From a virus, in the IMG/VR virus record IMGVR_UViG_3300021197_000426, positions 1 to 30,939 of that record: a stretch of 30,939 nucleotides of DNA; one strand, 5' to 3'. Position numbers and translations under genes: made by a program. The notes beneath the pieces were generated by a model. That model saw nothing but the letters and a program-made list of their open reading frames with translations. It had not been told where the DNA came from and searched no databases. Below are positions 7,393 through 24,407 of the stretch, piece after piece. Positions within the stretch are counted from its first letter, which is position 1. Each line of letters opens with the position of its first letter.

Positions 7393-10300
7393 ATGGCAGT
7401 AAGCATCGTACGAGGTCCTGACGGTCGGCAGCACAAGGTGCAGCACCCTGACGGGATTGCATCTTCTCAAATAATTAAATATGCTCAGCGTGAGATAGCC
7501 TCTGTTGCTAACGCAGAGGACTCCTTCGTCGTAGACGTAGGTAAGGGATTATTTACTGGCGGTTCTCAGGCGGCTGTTAGTTCAGCCGCTGGTGTTACGC
7601 AGTGGATGGGGCAGTCATTTGGTAGTGATAGCTTACTACAGGCCGCCGAAGATATGCGGCAGTACAGCCAGGGGATCGGCGATCAGGCTGGTTTAGACGA
7701 AGACTTCCGTGAGTCTTTCTTCGGTCAAGTCGTTCAGGGCTTGGGTCAGGTACCCGTTACTATTGGGGCAGGTGCAGTAGGTTTTGCCGTCGCTGGACCA
7801 GTAGGTATGTACGGCGCAGCCGCCTTGACTACAGGTGGACAGATGACCTCTGAGTTCTTGACGGACATGGAGCAGACTATTGGCAAACAGTACACGGACT
7901 TTAACGGGTCTGAAAAAGAAGCTGCACTAAAGGGTATGCTAGCGCAGACAGCACTAGGTACAACCCTTGAGCTGGCCGCCGTAGGCAAAGCCGTAAAGCC
8001 TTTACTTCGTAGAGTTAAAAGCGGCAAGGGCGTATCTTCTAAGGCACTTAAAAAAGCTATAGATCAAGACAAGAGTGCACTGCGTGAAATAGTCGAGTCA
8101 GGTTTAGCGGAGGGCTTCACCGAAGCCTCTCAAGGGCAGTCGCTAGATACTCTAGCTTCCATGCTTTACGACGAGGACCGTGAACTAATCACGATGGATA
8201 CACTTAAGCGCAGATCCTTGGAGTTCGGGGTAGGTGCAATCGTAGGCGGAACTGTAAGCGCTGGTGCCCAGGTTCTTGGTAGCCCAGGCAAGACTAGCAC
8301 AACCAATAAAGACTTAGGCAAGCCCGTCGAAGGACGGTCTGAAGTATCTGTCCCTCGGGAAATTCAAGTAACCTACAAGCCAGTAGACGGCAATACTACT
8401 ACTGTTACCCTGGCCGTTGATGAAGGCGAGGACTCTGCCGCTGCAGCAGAAAGAATACTAGAGGGTCGATACGACCCGAACGTAGGTCTGCAGGTCACCG
8501 AACTCGGAGAGCAGATGCCTCTTGACGTGGTTCTTGGCGAGGAGAAAGACGACGTATTAGAAGAAGACGTACCCGTAGATCCTGTGCCTGTTGAGCAGGC
8601 ACCAACTCCTGCACCAGAGCCTACCCCAGGGCAAGCACCCGAAGAAACAGAGACTCCTATACCAGCACAGCGTGATTACCGCAACGTCAAGGTAGGCGAT
8701 ACCATTGAGATTGTAGGCGTAAACGGCAAGACCAAACAAGTCGAGGCCATAGGTATCTCTGATGAATCTGGATTGATTAGATTTAAAAGAGAAGACGGCA
8801 CTATTGGGATAACGGGAAATGAAGTAGACTCACAGTTTTCAGACGTTAACTCTCCTGATTATGTTCTGCAATCTTCATCTACGGGCCAGGGAACTAGGGG
8901 CAAAAGCATTAAAAAATTATTCAACGATGAGCTTGATGCTTTAGAAAGAACTATAAATAAAAGGCTTGAAGAGGTTCCAGAACTTAGAGACCCTAACAAT
9001 CAATCTGCTCGAGAAAACATTGCTGACCTTAACGCTATAAAACTAGAGCGCAGCCGAAGAGGGCAGGCGCCTACAGCGCCTACTCCTACCCCAACTCCTG
9101 CACCAGAGCCGTCCGTAGAGACGGCACCTGAGTTTGAGGAAGAAGCTATATCTTTTCCTCTTCCTCAAGAGTTTAAGATCTCTCGCAGGATGGCCAGGTC
9201 TACGCCGAAATACAATAGCGCTGAGGTTAACTATGCTTCTGACTTAGAGCTTGCCGTTTACATAGCCAGCGGTAAGGGCAAGAACGCAGGCAGCGTTCGT
9301 GCTGAATTAATTGAATCAGGATTTTCTCCTGCGCAAATTAATGCAATGAGCAAGGATGTCCGTTCGCAGATGCGTAGGCAATACGATGCTGGCAGGCCTA
9401 TATCAGTTAAGATTAGTTCAGACATAACTGCCCAGGCATCAGGGGTCGATCGCCGCACACTGTCCTTCAAGGACGTTTTGAAGCGCACTCCAGAGATCCA
9501 AGAGCAAGCCAAGATACTTAAGGAAAACATCAAGGCTGGTGATCGTCAGCAAAGCCGCAAGGTAGCAGAGGTTGCAGATGAGTTTAAGTCAGTGCACGCT
9601 TACGATTTTGTGCCTGCACCTGAGACTAACTCAGATATGCGTACTGCTTTGAAAGAGAATCAAGTTCCTTTCTTGAACGCAGCAGTTCTTGATGGGAAAC
9701 GAGTAGCCATGCGCTTAGACATTCCCGCATACAAAAATTACGGAACTTGGGTTCCTGTAATTCACGAACCGAAAGGCAACTTTCAAGCTGGCGAGAAACT
9801 TTCGTATCAATCTACAGGGGTTCTTGAAAACGTGCAGCTTGGCGTGGCTGGTAAGGGAATCGCCGCCTTAAATATAGCAACTGGAAAAGACAAAGGAACT
9901 ATAGCTACGATTATAGGAACATACAAAAATGTAACTCCTACTCAAGCCAAGAAGATGGCCGACAAGGCCCTCAAAGATCCGTCTTACATACAAGTGGGCA
10001 TGGACCCAGAGCGCAGAGGTTACTTCTACAACCGTGAAACAATGAAAGAGGTGATTGCTGGCGACGAAGCAATCCAAGTTGGACCTCTTGTCTTAGTTAA
10101 GAATCCAGTATACGGAGCTACACCTAGTAATGAATACCTATCTTTAGGACAAGAAGCTGTAGCCCAGGATGTAGTGGCCGAGGCGGCACCGTTTACTGCA
10201 CCGCAAAAAGCTCCTCTGTCTCACGTTGAACAATCGGACATCATTGATATGGATGCCCTTATTGATGACATCGTAGAGAATGATATACCAGTATGGTTCT

Positions 10301-13300
10301 GGGCTGCAGACCAGCTTGGCGAAGGTGACTTTAATCTACCAAGCGGAGGTTCAGTAAATCTAGATGCAGGTCCCAGCTTTGCACTGCAGCCTGCTAACAG
10401 AGCGGCTGGTCGTGTATGGGCTTCTGGCAAATCGGCAACAGCAATTAACAATAAGATCTCGCAGCTTAAGTACACGGACAAGAATGGCAAAGAGCAGACG
10501 GGTTACATATTCTTGGTATCGGGAAGTCCCGACACGATGTTCTTGTTTAACAAGCAAGCGTTCTTAACCTTTTATCAAAACGCCTTTCAAGAAAAACAGA
10601 AGGACGGCACATTTGAACTTCGTGATTTCGCCGATGTAAAGAAAGAGATACTTGCAAGCAGGCCAACCAAGGTTGTTAAAGAGACGCTGAACAATCATAG
10701 CACTCTAGAGAGTTTAATGAACAGCTCCGCAAGCCGCCCATTCATTGAAGCGTTGCTGGCGCAACGTGGCAAGTCCACGCCTCTCGCTGAGTATTTAAAA
10801 TCCAAAGGGTTCTTCGATATAGAGAACAGTCAACTGCGTGACGGTTTCTACAGGGACAATAACTTTAAACTTAATGACGTACTGCTTGTAGTGAAACCTA
10901 CAAAAGCGGTCAAGGAAAAGATCGCCCACAAGACTTATACGACCCCCGTATACGGAGAGGTAGTTGGTGTCCCTGACAAAACTGTAGACGCTTATCTTTT
11001 GATTCCAGATTCGGTTCGTAAGAACAAAGAGATTACGATGGATCCGCCGCAGGCGGCTCAAGTCATAGCTCCGTACGGTGCCAGGGTAACTACTATTAAG
11101 AAGGTTGTCGGAAGCCAGCAAGCTCGTAGAGCTGTAAAGAAATTACGCAAGGTTATTGAAGATAGCCCCGACGGGTTTACTGTAGACACTGCTGGTGAAT
11201 TTGCCACTGGTGGATACATCGTTGCCCCTGATAAAGCTACGGAACGGGTTATCGACAAAGAGAATTTCAATGAAGAGTCCCTCACTCAATACATAATCGA
11301 CAACAAGCCGCACCTTAATGTAGAAGGAGCTATGCTTGGCGGATGGTATAATAGTGAAAACGGACAATACGTTTTAGACGTTGTGTTCGCCGTAGATAAC
11401 GAGCAGGATGCAGTTGACATCGCTATATGGGGCGATCAAGATGCTATATTTAACCTAGATACATTCACAGAAATACGCACAAAAGATGATAACAAAAATC
11501 CAACGACCCCGCAAGGAGACACCCGCACGGCAAGTGAAATCCTCAGTAGGAAACCAACCCAAAATCTTGGCGAGTATTCCTCCCAAAGAAGACGAGACTC
11601 CCGAGGCGTTCGCCAAGCGGTTCCTGGACAAACTGTCCAAGATGTAACAGCTCAAGCGGCAGAGACTGCCGCAGAGGATCGTGGTCCTCAAGAGACGTTT
11701 GATAATATCAATCAGCTTGAAGACTTCGTATCGAAGTCCTTCAGTTCAATAGCTGATAAGATGGGTATCAATATATACCCTAATATGCTAGGGCAGTTCG
11801 TGGCGCAGTACAACGTCACGCAGAAAATTATTGAGTACAATCCCAGGGCTTTACTTAACCGAACTAAGGCTGGCGTGCAGGCCGCAATGCGTGAAGAGAT
11901 TATTCACGCTGCTATGCACAACGTCCTTATACAGAAAGAAAAGAAAGCTAGGACTGGGCGTAGCGAAGATGCGCTATGGGTAGATTTCTTTACTGCACTG
12001 GGTAACAACCTTACCCCGCAAGAACGTGCAGAAATTCAGAACGTATACCAATCTCTACAGGAAGGCGACACGGTCGGCTTCGGTTCAGAGTACAGCCGTG
12101 CAGTCGTTCAGAAGTTCAGGTACGGGGACTTCACCGAGCAGTACATTGCAGTCGACAAGGGAGGCCCAGCCTTCCAGGCTATTGTAGATCTCCTTCGTTC
12201 GGTGCAGGCGTACATGGCCAAGGTCCTAGGACCTATGGTAAAGACTGACCCCGAGGCGGCTCAGGTGATCGTAGATACAGTAGAGCTTCTTAATGCTATT
12301 GACCCTACGATCCGACCAAAGAGTCAGCAGGTAGTGGCCAACGCTTACGATGCAACGGATAAGAACACAGCTCAAGAAAACACTGACCCTGGTGAAAGCG
12401 CAGACGCTAAAGCGTCAGAGCGAATCAGAGAAGAGCGCAAGTGGTTCGCTGATAGTTCATTGCGAAAGACTGCATCTAAGTTCCTTACTCCAGTTATTAC
12501 TCGGCTGAATCGTATTAACCCAATGTTTGGAAGGCTTCTTCAGAACTTGGACACTGCGATAAGAGAGCAATCGTTCCGCTATCGGAAACAAACCGAACCG
12601 TTTTTTAACAGGCTTAACGCAATCAAGGGAGAAGAGTTCCTTGAGATGAAACAGTTGTTATTCTTTAGCCCTACTCCAGAGGAGGCTAGTCGTCCAAGAA
12701 ACAAGGCTAAGATGCAGCGCAGGGATGCGCTACTTCATAAGTACGGTTTGCTTAATATGTATCGCTTGGATGTACAGCCCATTATGGAGGAGATATATGC
12801 GGAGTATACTAAACTCGGTATGCCCGCTATGGGCTACCTTGAGGATTATTTTCCTCGGGTAGTCAAAGATCTTGAGGGCCTAATTAATTCCTACGGGCAA
12901 AAGTCAAAGCGCACCTTTGAGCTTCTAGTCCGAGAGGAGAACGAACGCCGTAGCGCATTAAAGGACAAGGACGGCAACGATGCCTCGCTTCCCGAGATGA
13001 ACGACACCGAGCGTGCAAGGTTCTTCCAGGACTTCCTGCAGAATAAGTTCCGTGTAGATATTAACGGCGCTAGACTTCCAGGCAATGTTAAGGTCCGTGA
13101 TATTCAACTGATACCAGCGGACAAGTTAAAGTTCTACGATAACCCAGGCATTGCCTTCGGTAAGTACACGGCTAACATGGCCCGTGCTATCGAGAGCTTC
13201 AAGGTTGTTGGCGATACACGTAAGGGCAAGGGTAGCCTTCAAGGCGAACTAGGGAAGCTAACCGAAGAGCTATTCAGTGCAGGACAAATTGATAACGCCG

Positions 13301-14445
13301 ACGCAGATACTGTGAAGAGCTTGACTGAGCTTATTACTACGCAGTTCCAAGCAGAGAATGAAATACTTAAGAGCCTCGGTACGCTGACGTACATGGCTAC
13401 GCTAATCAACCCTGGCCCTGTGCTTGTGCAGATAATGGACTTGTACAAGGTCGCACTGTACCGTGGCTTAGGTGGCGTTGTGTCTGGGGTGTACCGCACT
13501 GTCACGGGGAACCGTAGGTTCGACATTGAAGATGATTTTAGCATATCTAAGACTCAGTTATCTGCTGAGTTCCAAGATCCCAGTGTACTTCAGAAGGCGC
13601 TGGACTTCGGCCTTAGCCGACTGGTCCCGTTCCGTCAGATGGATACAGCAATGAAGCACGCTAGTATAGAAGCGGCGTACGATGACTTCGTAAAGAAAGC
13701 GAAGGCACCTGTAGGTTCTAAGAAGTACGAGCAAATACTGAGTGAACTGACAATTACAATGGGCAGGGAAGATGCCTTGAAAACTATAGAAGATCTTAAA
13801 CTAGGTAAGGCTATGGATAGTATCTACGTTAAGGAGGCACTGCTTGCCGAGCTATTGCAACGTCAGCCATTGACTTACCTTCAGGTGCCCGAGGGTTACC
13901 AGACTGATCCAAGCAAGAGACTATTTTACAAGCTGAGTACCTTCATGCTACTTGACCTGAACTACAACAGGCAGGAGTTCATGAATGACCTCGGCGGACC
14001 AGGCAAGACACTGCAGCAGCGTACCGCTGCGCTTCGCAGGCTTGCATACATGGCTACCTTGCTGACCATGTTCGGCCTTCCGTCTGATCTGCTGGACGAC
14101 TGGATCTCAGGCAAGGATACATACATTCCCGAGCACGTGATGAACAATATGCTAGGTATGTTTGGCCTAAGTAAGTACACGACTACACGTGCCCTCGAGA
14201 AGGGCACAGTAGAGAGCGTTATACAGCGCTTCACTCCTCCTGCCGTGAACATTATTGTCAAGGGCGAGGAATCGCTAAGGTCCTGGGTCAAGGGCGACGT
14301 AGAGTTGTTTGAGATGAAGGCCTGGAGAAACTCTCCACTGTCCGATGTTTGGTACAACCGAACAGGTGCAGGTAAAAAACAACAGGAAAAGTTACAAAAA
14401 GAGAGACGCAAGGAAGGCGTAAGGCCTACCTTCGACAGGTCCTAA
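7393..14445 (+). CDS. Giant internal virion / ejection protein, mosaic of polyvalent-protein domains
   Basis: At 2350 residues this is by far the largest gene. The N-terminus (VRGPDGRQHKVQHPDGI) leads into an alanine/glycine-rich hydrophobic stretch around residues 120-150 that could insert in a membrane. Proline linkers occur near residues 395-430 and 560-580. Later blocks resemble domains of phage large polyvalent proteins: QVGMDPERRGYFYN at 867, PVWFWAADQLGEGDF at 966, MLGGWYN..GQYVLDVVFAV from 1314, a zincin-like EEIIHAAMH at 1501-1509 (EExxHxxxH rather than HExxH), and a long helical C-terminal half with LINPGPVLVQIMDLY near 2005. No lysozyme motif was recognised. It is the last gene before the convergent terminators. 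The expected role is formation of the ejection channel and delivery of effector domains with the DNA; domain names are tentative. Confidence 0.78.
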   Translation: MAVSIVRGPDGRQHKVQHPDGIASSQIIKYAQREIASVANAEDSFVVDVGKGLFTGGSQAAVSSAAGVTQWMGQSFGSDSLLQAAEDMRQYSQGIGDQAGLDEDFRESFFGQVVQGLGQVPVTIGAGAVGFAVAGPVGMYGAAALTTGGQMTSEFLTDMEQTIGKQYTDFNGSEKEAALKGMLAQTALGTTLELAAVGKAVKPLLRRVKSGKGVSSKALKKAIDQDKSALREIVESGLAEGFTEASQGQSLDTLASMLYDEDRELITMDTLKRRSLEFGVGAIVGGTVSAGAQVLGSPGKTSTTNKDLGKPVEGRSEVSVPREIQVTYKPVDGNTTTVTLAVDEGEDSAAAAERILEGRYDPNVGLQVTELGEQMPLDVVLGEEKDDVLEEDVPVDPVPVEQAPTPAPEPTPGQAPEETETPIPAQRDYRNVKVGDTIEIVGVNGKTKQVEAIGISDESGLIRFKREDGTIGITGNEVDSQFSDVNSPDYVLQSSSTGQGTRGKSIKKLFNDELDALERTINKRLEEVPELRDPNNQSARENIADLNAIKLERSRRGQAPTAPTPTPTPAPEPSVETAPEFEEEAISFPLPQEFKISRRMARSTPKYNSAEVNYASDLELAVYIASGKGKNAGSVRAELIESGFSPAQINAMSKDVRSQMRRQYDAGRPISVKISSDITAQASGVDRRTLSFKDVLKRTPEIQEQAKILKENIKAGDRQQSRKVAEVADEFKSVHAYDFVPAPETNSDMRTALKENQVPFLNAAVLDGKRVAMRLDIPAYKNYGTWVPVIHEPKGNFQAGEKLSYQSTGVLENVQLGVAGKGIAALNIATGKDKGTIATIIGTYKNVTPTQAKKMADKALKDPSYIQVGMDPERRGYFYNRETMKEVIAGDEAIQVGPLVLVKNPVYGATPSNEYLSLGQEAVAQDVVAEAAPFTAPQKAPLSHVEQSDIIDMDALIDDIVENDIPVWFWAADQLGEGDFNLPSGGSVNLDAGPSFALQPANRAAGRVWASGKSATAINNKISQLKYTDKNGKEQTGYIFLVSGSPDTMFLFNKQAFLTFYQNAFQEKQKDGTFELRDFADVKKEILASRPTKVVKETLNNHSTLESLMNSSASRPFIEALLAQRGKSTPLAEYLKSKGFFDIENSQLRDGFYRDNNFKLNDVLLVVKPTKAVKEKIAHKTYTTPVYGEVVGVPDKTVDAYLLIPDSVRKNKEITMDPPQAAQVIAPYGARVTTIKKVVGSQQARRAVKKLRKVIEDSPDGFTVDTAGEFATGGYIVAPDKATERVIDKENFNEESLTQYIIDNKPHLNVEGAMLGGWYNSENGQYVLDVVFAVDNEQDAVDIAIWGDQDAIFNLDTFTEIRTKDDNKNPTTPQGDTRTASEILSRKPTQNLGEYSSQRRRDSRGVRQAVPGQTVQDVTAQAAETAAEDRGPQETFDNINQLEDFVSKSFSSIADKMGINIYPNMLGQFVAQYNVTQKIIEYNPRALLNRTKAGVQAAMREEIIHAAMHNVLIQKEKKARTGRSEDALWVDFFTALGNNLTPQERAEIQNVYQSLQEGDTVGFGSEYSRAVVQKFRYGDFTEQYIAVDKGGPAFQAIVDLLRSVQAYMAKVLGPMVKTDPEAAQVIVDTVELLNAIDPTIRPKSQQVVANAYDATDKNTAQENTDPGESADAKASERIREERKWFADSSLRKTASKFLTPVITRLNRINPMFGRLLQNLDTAIREQSFRYRKQTEPFFNRLNAIKGEEFLEMKQLLFFSPTPEEASRPRNKAKMQRRDALLHKYGLLNMYRLDVQPIMEEIYAEYTKLGMPAMGYLEDYFPRVVKDLEGLINSYGQKSKRTFELLVREENERRSALKDKDGNDASLPEMNDTERARFFQDFLQNKFRVDINGARLPGNVKVRDIQLIPADKLKFYDNPGIAFGKYTANMARAIESFKVVGDTRKGKGSLQGELGKLTEELFSAGQIDNADADTVKSLTELITTQFQAENEILKSLGTLTYMATLINPGPVLVQIMDLYKVALYRGLGGVVSGVYRTVTGNRRFDIEDDFSISKTQLSAEFQDPSVLQKALDFGLSRLVPFRQMDTAMKHASIEAAYDDFVKKAKAPVGSKKYEQILSELTITMGREDALKTIEDLKLGKAMDSIYVKEALLAELLQRQPLTYLQVPEGYQTDPSKRLFYKLSTFMLLDLNYNRQEFMNDLGGPGKTLQQRTAALRRLAYMATLLTMFGLPSDLLDDWISGKDTYIPEHVMNNMLGMFGLSKYTTTRALEKGTVESVIQRFTPPAVNIIVKGEESLRSWVKGDVELFEMKAWRNSPLSDVWYNRTGAGKKQQEKLQKERRKEGVRPTFDRS

Positions 14446-19853: not shown

Positions 19854-19881
19854 TTGACGTCTATTTTGTGTTCGTTATAAT
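19854..19881 (+). promoter_or_regulatory. Sigma70-like promoter on the + strand, antisense to the operon
   Basis: TTGACG at 19854-19859 and TATAAT at 19876-19881 are separated by 16 bases. The match is close to consensus but points rightward, against the - strand genes on both sides. A start near 19888 would transcribe the adjacent palindromes and hairpin and then run antisense into the MazZ-like gene. It could be a real antisense promoter or a chance match in an A+T-rich gap. Confidence 0.4.
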
Positions 19882-21769: not shown

Positions 21770-22021
21770 TTAGTCGGTTGATGCTTGTCTTAACTCGTCC
21801 CACCATACCTCGTCGTTAGGGATAGAATCTAGTTCGTGACTAGGCGTTTTACCTGCTCCACTAAGCTCATCGACCCCGTCTTCAAGAACGCCTCTCGCCT
21901 CTCTGAGTATGGCGTATAAAACCATATCGTCGGAGTCGTATGCTTGCGCAATTTGAGAAGTTAGATAAGCCCTAGCATAAGCTAAAGCTGTGATGTTTCG
22001 CTCGATAGTTTTTTCTTTCAT
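21770..22021 (-). CDS. Hypothetical phage protein
   Basis: An 83-residue acidic protein. Its helical first half is MKEKTIERNITALAYARAYL, then QAYDSDDMVLYAILREARGV; the tail is IPNDEVWWDELRQASTD. The start overlaps the upstream stop (ATGA) and is preceded by ATACAACT. The function is unknown. Confidence 0.62.
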   Translation of the reverse strand: MKEKTIERNITALAYARAYLTSQIAQAYDSDDMVLYAILREARGVLEDGVDELSGAGKTPSHELDSIPNDEVWWDELRQASTD

Positions 22022-22206
22022 AGTTGTATTAGTTTATTGTGGACGATGTCGTATAGCTCAATGAACAGGTCTTGCGCCTCTTCGGTGAATGAGATGCAGT
22101 CTCCGCTTTCGTCGCACTCCCATGTTAGGTGCGAGCCGATGCGATGCTCGACTATCTCAGTTGCAATCTCGCTAGCGAGTTGGTTGATGTTTGTTTCTGT
22201 CTTCAT
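22018..22206 (-). CDS. Small acidic hypothetical protein, first gene after a structured leader
   Basis: A 62-residue protein (MKTETNINQLASEIATEIVE, HLTWECDESGDCISFTEEAQ, DLFIELYDIVHNKLIQL). It has helix-strand-helix character; no family is recognised. The ATG is preceded by AATACAAACT and by the two-hairpin leader at 22208-22279. Confidence 0.62.
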   Translation of the reverse strand: MKTETNINQLASEIATEIVEHRIGSHLTWECDESGDCISFTEEAQDLFIELYDIVHNKLIQL

Positions 22207-22279
22207 AGTTTGTATTGCTGTGTTAGTTCGACGGAGTGTCCGTCTACCCAGAAAGCCCGCACCGATTAAGGTGCAGGCT
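22207..22279 (-). ncRNA. Structured leader element B: terminator hairpin plus second hairpin plus CAA-rich start region
   Basis: Read on the - strand, a 26-base hairpin AGCC..GGCT (22254-22279, with GCACC pairing to GGTGC) is followed by TTTCTGGGTAGA. Next comes a second hairpin, GACGGA-cac-TCCGTC (22230-22244), then GAACTAACACAG and CAATACAAACTATG. The first hairpin with its U-rich tail can act as a terminator for the upstream gene (22290-22616). The whole arrangement repeats in element A at 22813-22888 with different stem sequences. Confidence 0.65.
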
Positions 22280-22289
22280 GAGGGTTGGG

Positions 22290-22616
22290 TTACGCTTCAA
22301 GTGCGTCCCACTTGTTGATGAATGCGTCCCACGCATCGTCGAAATCCTGCACGACTTTAGGCGACGCTAAAATGGCGTGCCCGATGTCATAGATGGTGGC
22401 CGACGCCTCGTTACCGATGAGGGTGTAGGCGGTGATGCGATCCCCGTCTTTGACGAAGGATAGTGTGCCTTCTTCGGCGGCGGTCGCCCACTCCACGGCC
22501 TGTGCCGTAGATGGATCTTTGATGCGGTCTTCACCGTCACTAGCTGATACTAGCTTGAAGCCTGCGGCCTCTTGAAAGTGAATGAAGGAGCGGAGAACTT
22601 TATTGTAATCTGTCAT
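22290..22616 (-). CDS. Hypothetical phage protein
   Basis: A 108-residue acidic protein. SFIHFQEAAGFKLVSASDGE, then AYTLIGNEASATIYDIGHAI and VQDFDDAWDAFINKWDALE, resembles a group of small proteins in various phages with DGEE and LGNxPxExI..D motifs; no function is known. The start is preceded by CCAATACACACT, a variant of the leader sequence found before its neighbours. Confidence 0.65.
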   Translation of the reverse strand: MTDYNKVLRSFIHFQEAAGFKLVSASDGEDRIKDPSTAQAVEWATAAEEGTLSFVKDGDRITAYTLIGNEASATIYDIGHAILASPKVVQDFDDAWDAFINKWDALEA

Positions 22617-22635
22617 AGTGTGTATTGGTTATGTG

Positions 22636-22812
22636 TTAGTTTACTTCCCCGTCTTCGGAGATTATGCCCTGCTCAATTAAGTCTTGGGCGGTGCGTTGGT
22701 AGTGCCCTTGCATTGCAGTGATGAACCCAGTCATCACTAGCTCGGCAAAGAATTGTATGGTTTCGTCTTGGCTCATTTCGCCAGACTCGTAGGAGATGAT
22801 TGCTTGTATCAT
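22636..22812 (-). CDS. Small conserved phage protein (DUF7417-like)
   Basis: A 58-residue protein from ATG 22812, chosen because it is preceded by CAATACAAACT; the longer frame to 22884 would run through the terminator hairpin. IISYESGEMSQDETIQFFAE, then LVMTGFITAMQGHYQRTAQD and LIEQGIISEDGE, follows a very common small phage family (YExGELxxEExxxLFQxLxDTGxxxxLQGxYxRTAxxLI). I believe it is now catalogued as a DUF; the number is from memory. The function is unknown. Confidence 0.78.
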   Translation of the reverse strand: MIQAIISYESGEMSQDETIQFFAELVMTGFITAMQGHYQRTAQDLIEQGIISEDGEVN

Positions 22813-22888
22813 AGTTTGTATTGGTTGTGTGTTAGTCAGAGGCAGTATGCCTCTACCCAAAAAGCCGTGACCCCGAAGAGCCACGGCT
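22813..22888 (-). ncRNA. Structured leader element A: UUCG-capped terminator plus second hairpin plus CAA-rich start region
   Basis: On the - strand, AGCCGTGGCTC and GGGTCACGGCT pair (11 bp including wobbles) around a TTCG tetraloop (22863-22888) and are followed by TTTTTGGG, a classical terminator seven bases after the stop of the upstream gene. Then come GGGTAG, a second hairpin AGAGGCA-tac-TGCCTCT (22838-22854), GACTAACACACAAC and CAATACAAACTATG. The order and flanking words match element B, while the stems differ but keep their pairing. Confidence 0.72.
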
Positions 22889-22894
22889 GTGGTA

Positions 22895-23254
22895 TTACTT
22901 TCTGATCTTGAGTTCGATCACCTTCTCGGCTTCCCCCTTGGCACCCCATGATTGGAGGGAACCCCAGTCATCGACCCAAGGTTCGATTAGATCTCCGTTC
23001 TCATAGCCCGTGAGGTTGACTCGGCATCGTTTTAGCTCAGCCTTAGTCTCGTCTGTCCATCGGCTCTCGACTGGGTCAAGCTCCAGACGATAGACGTGTG
23101 CCAAAGGAGTTTTACTTTCCTTCGTGGTGTTCAAGCTGTAAAACGAGTTAACTCTGGCATTTTTCAATGCCTCTAACAGATCTGGGGATCTGCCCCAGTG
23201 TCCGTGGTTTGTGATTACTACGTAGCGGATAAAACTTTTGTTTTTCTCAGTCAT
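22895..23254 (-). CDS. Hypothetical phage protein, first gene of the leftward operon
   Basis: A 119-residue protein from ATG 23254 (MTEKNKSFIRYVVITNHGHW, then LLEALKNARVNSFY, VYRLELDPVESRW and EPWVDDWGSLQSWG). The frame extends to 23278, but 23254 has the A+T-rich AAAATT context like other genes here. The opening strand-helix pattern (YVVITNHGHWGRSPDLLEAL) is typical of small phage early proteins of unknown role. It is the first gene transcribed leftward from the large non-coding region. Confidence 0.65.
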   Translation of the reverse strand: MTEKNKSFIRYVVITNHGHWGRSPDLLEALKNARVNSFYSLNTTKESKTPLAHVYRLELDPVESRWTDETKAELKRCRVNLTGYENGDLIEPWVDDWGSLQSWGAKGEAEKVIELKIRK

Positions 23255-23356
23255 AATTTTGATGTGTTGATTGGTCATCTGTGTTTACACGGGCTGTGAA
23301 CCGTCCCAGAGTTGGGGCTACATTACCAATCTATGTCCCACTTGCTACGTCATCGA

Positions 23357-23418
23357 GGCCGCTTTGGCGGCCACCTCTCCACTTACTGATCATTAGGTGC
23401 GTAATGCACGGAGAGGCC
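23357..23418. repeat. Nested hairpins at the start of the leftward leader
   Basis: GGCCGC-tttg-GCGGCC (23357-23372) is followed by CCTCTCC (23374-23380), which pairs with GGAGAGG (23410-23416). Within that outer stem lies GTGC-gtaat-GCAC (23397-23409). This is a compact folded region; it may be an RNA structure or a protein-binding cruciform. Confidence 0.45.
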
Positions 23419-23683
23419 ATCCGAGGTTTTCCCATGTCGAAGGCCGAGTCGCTGTCATATATCCGCAAGTCCAAAGCTCAAGGCAGAGGGTCTTCTGAAC
23501 GGTAGAGATGCTAGCGGTCGACATCCGAGGTCGGAGTCGGTAGCGTTTGGACTGGAAAAGAACGGGTGTTACGCATCAATTATAGCGAATAATATGTGAA
23601 TAGATATCACTAGTTTTGAACACCTCATCCAAAATAATGAAACTATTGTAAGGATGGCGGCCACAAGCCGCCTATATAGTTAC

Positions 23684-24356: not shown

Positions 24357-24378
24357 AGCATTATACACTAGTTTTTAC

Positions 24379-24407
24379 TTGACTGTCAAGTCCTATTTGT
24401 AAATAAT
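24379..24407 (+). promoter_or_regulatory. Sigma70-type promoter of the terminase operon
   Basis: TTGACT at 24379-24384 and AATAAT at 24402-24407 are separated by exactly 17 bases. The predicted start, six to seven bases past the -10, falls on the A of the small terminase ATG at 24414, which would make a leaderless transcript. No SD is present, consistent with that. Confidence 0.68.

What the first reader, a model, noticed from the sequence alone, without database searches (positions are those of the whole stretch)
22207..22888. Repeated two-hairpin leader RNA with covarying stems in the leftward operon
Two leaders (22813-22888 and 22207-22279, - strand) share the same order: a 26-base AGCC..GGCT hairpin, T-rich tail, GGGTAGA, a short hairpin with a 3-base loop, ACTAACACA, CAATACAAACTATG. 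The words between the stems are conserved. The second stem changes from AGAGGCA/TGCCTCT to GACGGA/TCCGTC, and the inner part of the first stem changes too, with pairing retained. Compensatory change is evidence for selected RNA structure. Because a terminator sits inside an operon, the element may control read-through (attenuation or an RNA-based anti-terminator as in HK022 put sites) or RNA processing.
Basis: partly seen in the sequence, partly recalled or inferred. Interest (0 to 1): 0.8.

Follow-up and report, generated by a model that had tools for sequence, protein, structure and literature searches.

The report
Repeated two-hairpin spacers between phage genes
A family of marine phages places the same small two-hairpin RNA module between many of its early genes, probably to end one message and protect the start of the next, and in relatives the second hairpin is sometimes replaced by a self-cleaving ribozyme or a tRNA-like fold.

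Summary
Both leaders are exactly where stated, and a covariance model built without them finds them (E 2.6e-21 and 3.3e-18). They belong to an RNA element absent from Rfam: at least 166 distinct copies in 61 related viral fragments, up to about ten per genome, and no exact-pattern match in 257 Gb of prokaryote genomes. A typical copy has a 10-12 bp terminator-like hairpin (H1) 5-22 nt after a stop codon, TTTYTGGGTR, a 15-nt hairpin (H2), 3 nt, YTAACA, and a CA-rich leader without Shine-Dalgarno before ATG. Both stems covary beyond a tree-based null. Copies precede about 80 gene families, so the module belongs to the gap, not to a gene. In relatives the H2 slot can hold longer hairpins or a tmRNA-type tRNA-like domain; before the first gene, in the window too, a twister ribozyme follows a RAGATH-24 RNA. 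Orthologues of that gene have either twister or H1+H2 upstream. Best reading, inferred: intercistronic mRNA punctuation. H1 makes the upstream 3' end; read-through RNA is cut between the hairpins; H2 caps the downstream 5' end. HK022-put membership is not supported; put-like antitermination by RAGATH-24 remains open. No transcript data exist.

The parts
22863..22888 (-). H1, copy 1: AGCCGTGGCTC-TTCG-GGGTCACGGCT, 11 bp, terminator-like (TTTT follows)
22854..22862 (-). linker TTTTGGGTA, copy 1
   Evidence: TT[TC]TGGGT[AG] conserved in 104 aligned copies
22839..22853 (-). H2, copy 1: GAGGC-A-TAC-T-GCCTC (extended by A22854/T22838)
22813..22835 (-). CA-rich leader without Shine-Dalgarno, CTAACACACAACCAATACAAACT, before ATG 22812
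22636..22812 (-). 58-aa DUF7417 gene (PF24192) downstream of copy 1
22254..22279 (-). H1, copy 2: AGCCTGCACC-TTAATC-GGTGCGGGCT, 10 bp
22245..22253 (-). linker TTCTGGGTA, copy 2
22230..22244 (-). H2, copy 2: GACGGA-CAC-TCCGTC
22207..22226 (-). CA-rich leader CTAACACAGCAATACAAACT before ATG 22206
22018..22206 (-). 62-aa gene of unknown function downstream of copy 2
22617..22640 (-). same leader words without hairpins, before ATG 22616
   Evidence: (repeat D12)
23271..23329 (-). twister-P1 ribozyme-like RNA between RAGATH-24 and the first gene, where orthologues of that gene in other phages have H1+H2
   Evidence: 40.9 bits, E 5.7e-7, below gathering 67.2; conserved in relatives
23333..23558 (-). 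RAGATH-24 RNA (expanded) in the operon leader
   Evidence: 38.8 bits, E 5e-6, below gathering 45.3; above gathering in relatives
24360..24389 (-). sigma70-type promoter TTGACA-18-TATAAT of the leftward operon
   Evidence: 12/12; conserved in relatives

Best explanation
The feature is a modular intercistronic mRNA-punctuation element. SHOWN: it lies in gaps between co-directional early genes; both hairpins are conserved as base-paired structures; it is exchanged independently of the genes around it; a tRNA-like domain can replace H2 behind H1, and orthologues of the first gene have either twister or H1+H2. INFERRED: the early operon is transcribed by host RNA polymerase from the sigma70 promoter at 24389-24360. 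At each element H1 makes the 3' end of the upstream message, by partial intrinsic termination and/or by blocking 3' exonucleases. Transcripts that read through are cut in the short single strand between H1 and H2 (TTTYTGGGTR), probably by a host RNase. H2 then sits at the 5' end of the downstream message and shields it from 5'-end-dependent decay, while the CA-rich leader without Shine-Dalgarno stays open for the ribosome. Before the first gene a twister ribozyme does the cutting itself and removes the RAGATH-24 leader.
For: Position: 166 distinct copies in 61 loci; stop codon 5-22 nt upstream in 153; ATG a median 50 nt after H1 in 158; one strand per record among those searched. Structure: 25 distinct H1 stems and 48 distinct H2 sequences, nearly all pairing, in 89 combinations among 104 copies; covariation above a tree null and above shuffles and slides. 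Modularity: about 80 downstream gene families. Slot exchange: orthologues of gene 22895-23278 have twister (9) or H1 with H2 or extended H2 (6) upstream; the MTIEK gene has H1+H2 (3), H1 + tRNA-like domain (1) or nothing (4). Processing-type RNAs in the same operons: twister, hammerhead II, tmRNA-type tRNA-like domains. Leader 47% A, 5% G; SD-like 4-mers before 9 of 158 starts. Precedent: T4 gene 32 mRNA is cut by RNase E 71 nt before its start codon and is unusually stable (PMC3014915).
Against: No transcript ends are known and no RNase site is identified. Near-absence of G-U in H2 (2 of 499 paired cells, against 136 of 1038 in H1) is unusual for a plain stabilising RNA hairpin and would also fit a DNA-level hairpin. 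The first window gene has no H1 before it, so twister and H1+H2 are not equivalent in every part. Several operon genes have neither hairpin.
Confidence: 0.5

Rival explanations
1. Attenuation with antitermination: the H1s are real terminators that stop unmodified polymerase, and an RNA made earlier (RAGATH-24, between promoter and first gene) or H2 itself modifies polymerase so that it reads through the series, as HK022 put RNA or a nut site does.
For: Up to ten H1s in series in one record would starve distal genes (in the window DnaB, ERF and a PD-(D/E)XK nuclease lie downstream of both elements) unless read-through is high. RAGATH-24 sits after the early promoter, where put lies (PMC9378689). 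H2 is a 15-nt hairpin with a 5-nt loop, the size of boxB (own knowledge).
Against: H1 U-tracts are short (TTTTTGGG, TTTCTGGG), so read-through may need no factor. H2 lies after, not before, its terminator. Its loop is variable (A-N-N-Y-N), unlike a purine boxB loop. No function of RAGATH-24 was found in the open papers.
Confidence: 0.22
2. H2 is a DNA hairpin promoter, as for the N4 virion RNA polymerase, placed behind a terminator so that each gene has its own transcript.
For: Fixed spacing H2-N3-YTAACA in 105 of 116 copies, fixed positions A2, G4, A6, Y9 among otherwise free pairs, almost no G-U.
Against: No PF00940 match in 12 records, though the control genomes rang nowhere, so this shows little. 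The 2350-aa virion-type protein has no family hit and lacks the T/DxxGR and HD(S) motif strings. Extended H2s contain G-U pairs. A strong sigma70 promoter is conserved.
Confidence: 0.1
3. The conserved element is mainly a recombination linker that lets phages swap small early genes; structure is secondary.
For: About 80 downstream gene families, 48 of them singletons; H1 and H2 types mix freely; orthologous genes sit behind different elements.
Against: Linker use selects sequence identity, whereas the stems keep pairing while sequence changes. Linker use alone does not explain replacement by a tRNA-like domain.
Confidence: 0.13
4. H1 only is functional (an ordinary terminator); H2 is a passenger of the duplicated spacer.
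For: H1 resembles standard intrinsic terminators.
Against: H2 shows its own covariation at three pairs, occurs behind diverse H1s, and occurs without H1 in the operon leader of L004 and L008 and before a gene in L236.
Confidence: 0.05

Closest known systems
Start-associated sequences (SAS) and extended SAS of cluster K mycobacteriophages (PMC3203893)
   Same: Repeated element just upstream of start codons of many non-structural genes of different families, one orientation, about half with an inverted repeat just upstream.
   Different: SAS contains a Shine-Dalgarno core and its inverted repeats do not support RNA pairing (the authors favour a DNA-binding protein); here both stems covary, there is no SD, and a terminator-like hairpin comes first.
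HK022 put RNA (PMC9378689)
   Same: About 70 nt, two stem-loops, in a phage early transcript with terminators.
   Different: One put per early promoter, upstream of the terminators; here up to ten copies, each starting with the terminator-like hairpin and directly before a start codon. No sequence comparison was made.
T4 gene 32 mRNA processing by RNase E (PMC3014915)
   Same: Processing upstream of a start codon within polycistronic phage messages, giving a very stable mRNA.
   Different: A single gene with a different leader; no repeated covarying module.
RAGATH-24 RNA and twister/hammerhead ribozymes of phage operons (Rfam RF03049, RF03160, RF02276)
   Same: Found in the same operons; twister occupies the position before orthologous genes.
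   Different: H1-H2 matches no Rfam family and has no recognisable catalytic core.
Plastid intercistronic expression element (PMC2230500, abstract only)
   Same: Element between genes that allows stable translatable monocistronic mRNAs from an operon.
   Different: Organellar; no relation in sequence is claimed or tested.

Membership tests
Any Rfam family | score at or above the curated threshold over the element | tested here: not met
   only chance-level hits (E above 1) over 22207-22896; none named at the element itself in relatives
Intrinsic terminator (H1) | GC-rich stem of at least 5 bp followed directly by a U-rich tract | tested here: inconclusive
   stem 10-12 bp in all 39 seed copies; copy 1 passes the scan, copy 2 (TTTCTGGG) does not
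HK022 put RNA | located between early promoter and the terminators it suppresses, one per promoter | tested here: not met
   each copy begins with the terminator-like hairpin; up to ten per record (PMC9378689)
HK022 put RNA | causes antitermination of RNA polymerase in cis | not testable with these tools
   needs in vitro transcription
Lambda-type nut/boxB | 15-nt hairpin with conserved purine pentaloop | tested here: not met
   loop is A-N-N-Y-N, variable
Lambda-type nut/boxB | boxA upstream of boxB | not tested
   not searched for
Cluster K SAS/ESAS | 13-bp GGGATAGGAGCCC with a Shine-Dalgarno core at -3 to -7 of the start | tested here: not met
   SD-like 4-mers before 9 of 158 starts; leader has 5% G
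N4-type hairpin promoter | phage-encoded virion RNA polymerase | tested here: inconclusive
   no hits, but the PF00940 control rang nowhere
Self-cleaving ribozyme (H1-H2 itself) | conserved catalytic core nucleotides outside the stems | tested here: not met
   H1 loops vary in length and sequence; in the H2 loop only A6 and Y9 are fixed; activity not tested

The most novel reading that the evidence does not exclude
These phages have a general mRNA-punctuation code: early genes carry an interchangeable structured 5' cap (plain hairpin, twister or hammerhead ribozyme, or a tmRNA-type tRNA-like domain possibly cut by RNase P), paired with a 3' hairpin on the gene before, while RAGATH-24 in the leader acts as a put-like antiterminator that keeps the series of terminators open.
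Probability: 0.2. Interest if true: 0.85.

Novelty: new variant of a known kind. Interest (0 to 1): 0.62.

Why it matters
It would be an RNA family without an Rfam entry that marks gene boundaries in a widespread group of uncultured marine phages. It gives a concrete context, and a testable role, for RAGATH-24, for twister and hammerhead ribozymes in phage operons, and for stray tmRNA-like domains: all sit before gene starts of the same operon. It also provides a portable sequence signature and a set of natural variants for reporter tests of intercistronic processing.

Tried and rejected
Rfam at gathering and relaxed thresholds over the element: no family. N4-like hairpin promoter: pursued because H2 has free-but-paired positions, fixed spacing and almost no G-U; no polymerase found, extended H2s contain G-U, and template-strand versus RNA-strand wobble counts are equal (5 and 5). 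Sigma70 promoters inside the element: only slightly above shuffles (40 versus 25 of 166 with 9 or more matches). Host search: no relative of the terminase and no exact element pattern in genome contigs. The cultured relative Phage C75C1 (terminase 74.5% identical) lacks the element, as do more distant terminase relatives; fragment ends limit this. The first, loose DNA pattern gave mostly chance matches and was replaced. No paper in the open library names RAGATH-24. ARAGORN did not call the tRNA-like domain of L181 although Rfam did.

Full report
CHECK. Both leaders are present at the stated coordinates on the minus strand. Copy 1: H1 22888-22863, linker TTTTGGGTA, H2 22853-22839, leader to 22813, ATG 22812. 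Copy 2: H1 22279-22254, linker TTCTGGGTA, H2 22244-22230, leader to 22207, ATG 22206. RNA folding gives two hairpins in each, z -5.2 and -5.6, with no shuffle of 200 as stable. Rfam has no family there.

RELATIVES. Terminase relatives and a DNA pattern that leaves the stems free gave 39 full copies in other contigs and the window. A covariance model (R1) then found 98 matches in 100 loci, and 241 in 69 loci after a further viral scan with a pattern fitted to the element. The same pattern has no match in 257 Gb of prokaryote genomes. A second model built without window copies finds exactly the two window copies, E 2.6e-21 and 3.3e-18; its only other match is the mirror of H1, E 0.017.

ANATOMY. 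After removal of duplicates there are 166 elements in 61 loci. A stop codon ends 5-22 nt before H1 in 153; the next ATG is a median 50 nt after H1. In 104 copies that fit one register, 25 H1 stems and 48 H2 sequences combine in 89 ways. TT[TC]-(T mostly)-GGGT is invariant or nearly so. H2 has fixed A2-T14, nearly fixed G4-C12 and loop A6, and a pyrimidine at 9 (100 of 104); pairs 1, 3 and 5 change freely but mostly stay paired. YTAACA follows after exactly 3 nt in 105 of 116 copies in which it could be located.

COVARIATION. On A1 the covariation score is 0.371 against 0.140 (sd 0.014) in shuffles and at most 0.128 in slid structures; on 125 distinct rows of A3, 0.381 against 0.138 (that alignment leans to the model). 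A null that places the same number of substitutions at random on a FastTree tree gives p 0.001 for H1 pairs 6-10 and 0.005 for pair 5, and p 0.001, 0.001 and 0.007 for H2 pairs 1, 3 and 5. Recombination between copies makes any tree approximate. G-U pairs are 136 of 1038 in H1 but 2 of 499 in H2; longer H2 variants do contain G-U.

CONTEXT. The leftward operon starts at a 12/12 sigma70 promoter, 24389-24360, conserved in relatives. Then come a RAGATH-24 RNA (23558-23333) and a twister-P1 ribozyme (23329-23271), both below Rfam gathering in the window (E 5e-6 and 5.7e-7) but with conserved equivalents in relatives: RAGATH-24 above gathering in many, twister again at E 1e-6 in L193. A hammerhead II lies in L180 and L206, and tmRNA-type tRNA-like domains without the mRNA-like part lie in L181, L189, L160, L161, L204, L211, L227 and L236.

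SLOT EXCHANGE. Upstream regions of orthologues were classified with simple sequence rules. The first window gene (22895-23278) has twister in nine phages including the window, and H1 with H2 or extended H2 in six. The 22636-22812 gene has H1+H2 in eight, of several H2 types, and none in eleven distant relatives. The MTIEK gene has H1+H2 in three, H1 + tRNA-like domain in L181, nothing in four. So what sits before a gene depends on its place and history, not on the gene.

MECHANISM. What is shown is selected pairing, fixed order, gap position and exchangeability. That H1 forms 3' ends, that cutting happens between the hairpins and that H2 protects the 5' end is inference, guided by the ribozymes and tRNA-like domains in the same operons and by T4 gene 32 (PMC3014915). 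Up to ten elements in series mean that read-through must be high, by weak U-tracts or by antitermination; the latter would make RAGATH-24 a put-like candidate, since put lies after early promoters and suppresses terminators kilobases away (PMC9378689). The two-hairpin element itself does not match put in position or number.

NOVELTY. No Rfam family and no paper found describes this element, though only an open-access library was searched. The kind (structured, repeated intergenic or start-associated elements) is known, for example SAS/ESAS of cluster K mycobacteriophages, whose inverted repeats do not support RNA pairing (PMC3203893). I therefore file it as a new variant of a known kind.

Noticed in passing
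L181:11519-11453 (-); also L189:10052-10119, L160:11917-11982, L161:2625-2559, and in L204, L211, L227, L236: tmRNA tRNA-like domains without any mRNA-like part lie upstream of gene starts; in L181 the acceptor stem has a G3-U70 pair and encoded CCA, so it might be charged with alanine and cut by RNase P.
   Followed up: partly
window 23558-23271 (-): RAGATH-24 RNA directly followed by a twister-P1 ribozyme in the leader of the operon, below Rfam gathering thresholds but conserved in position in relatives.
   Followed up: partly
L204, L205, L236, L111 after H1: After the terminator-like hairpin some copies have GGGTAGACGGACAGGGCTTTGACCCGTGAATTAAAA... (L111 a close variant) instead of H2, perhaps a separate structured RNA.
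   Followed up: no
window ~24347-24326, ~24276-24257, ~19950-19880: Repeated palindromes of the type CTCCTTAAGGAG, one just downstream of the sigma70 -10 box; possible operator.
   Followed up: no
window 24255-24200 versus L004, L007, L008: A 28-nt piece with H2 (CGGTAGAAGCATACTGCTTCTCCTTGCA) is present in the operon leader of L004 and absent from the window, inside a hairpin loop; H2 there has no H1.
   Followed up: partly
window 7393-14445 (+): 2350-aa protein at the end of the structural genes with no Pfam, PHROGs or convincing PDB match.
   Followed up: partly
window 19854-19881 (+): An 11/12 sigma70-type promoter points against the leftward operon in a stretch without an obvious gene.
   Followed up: no
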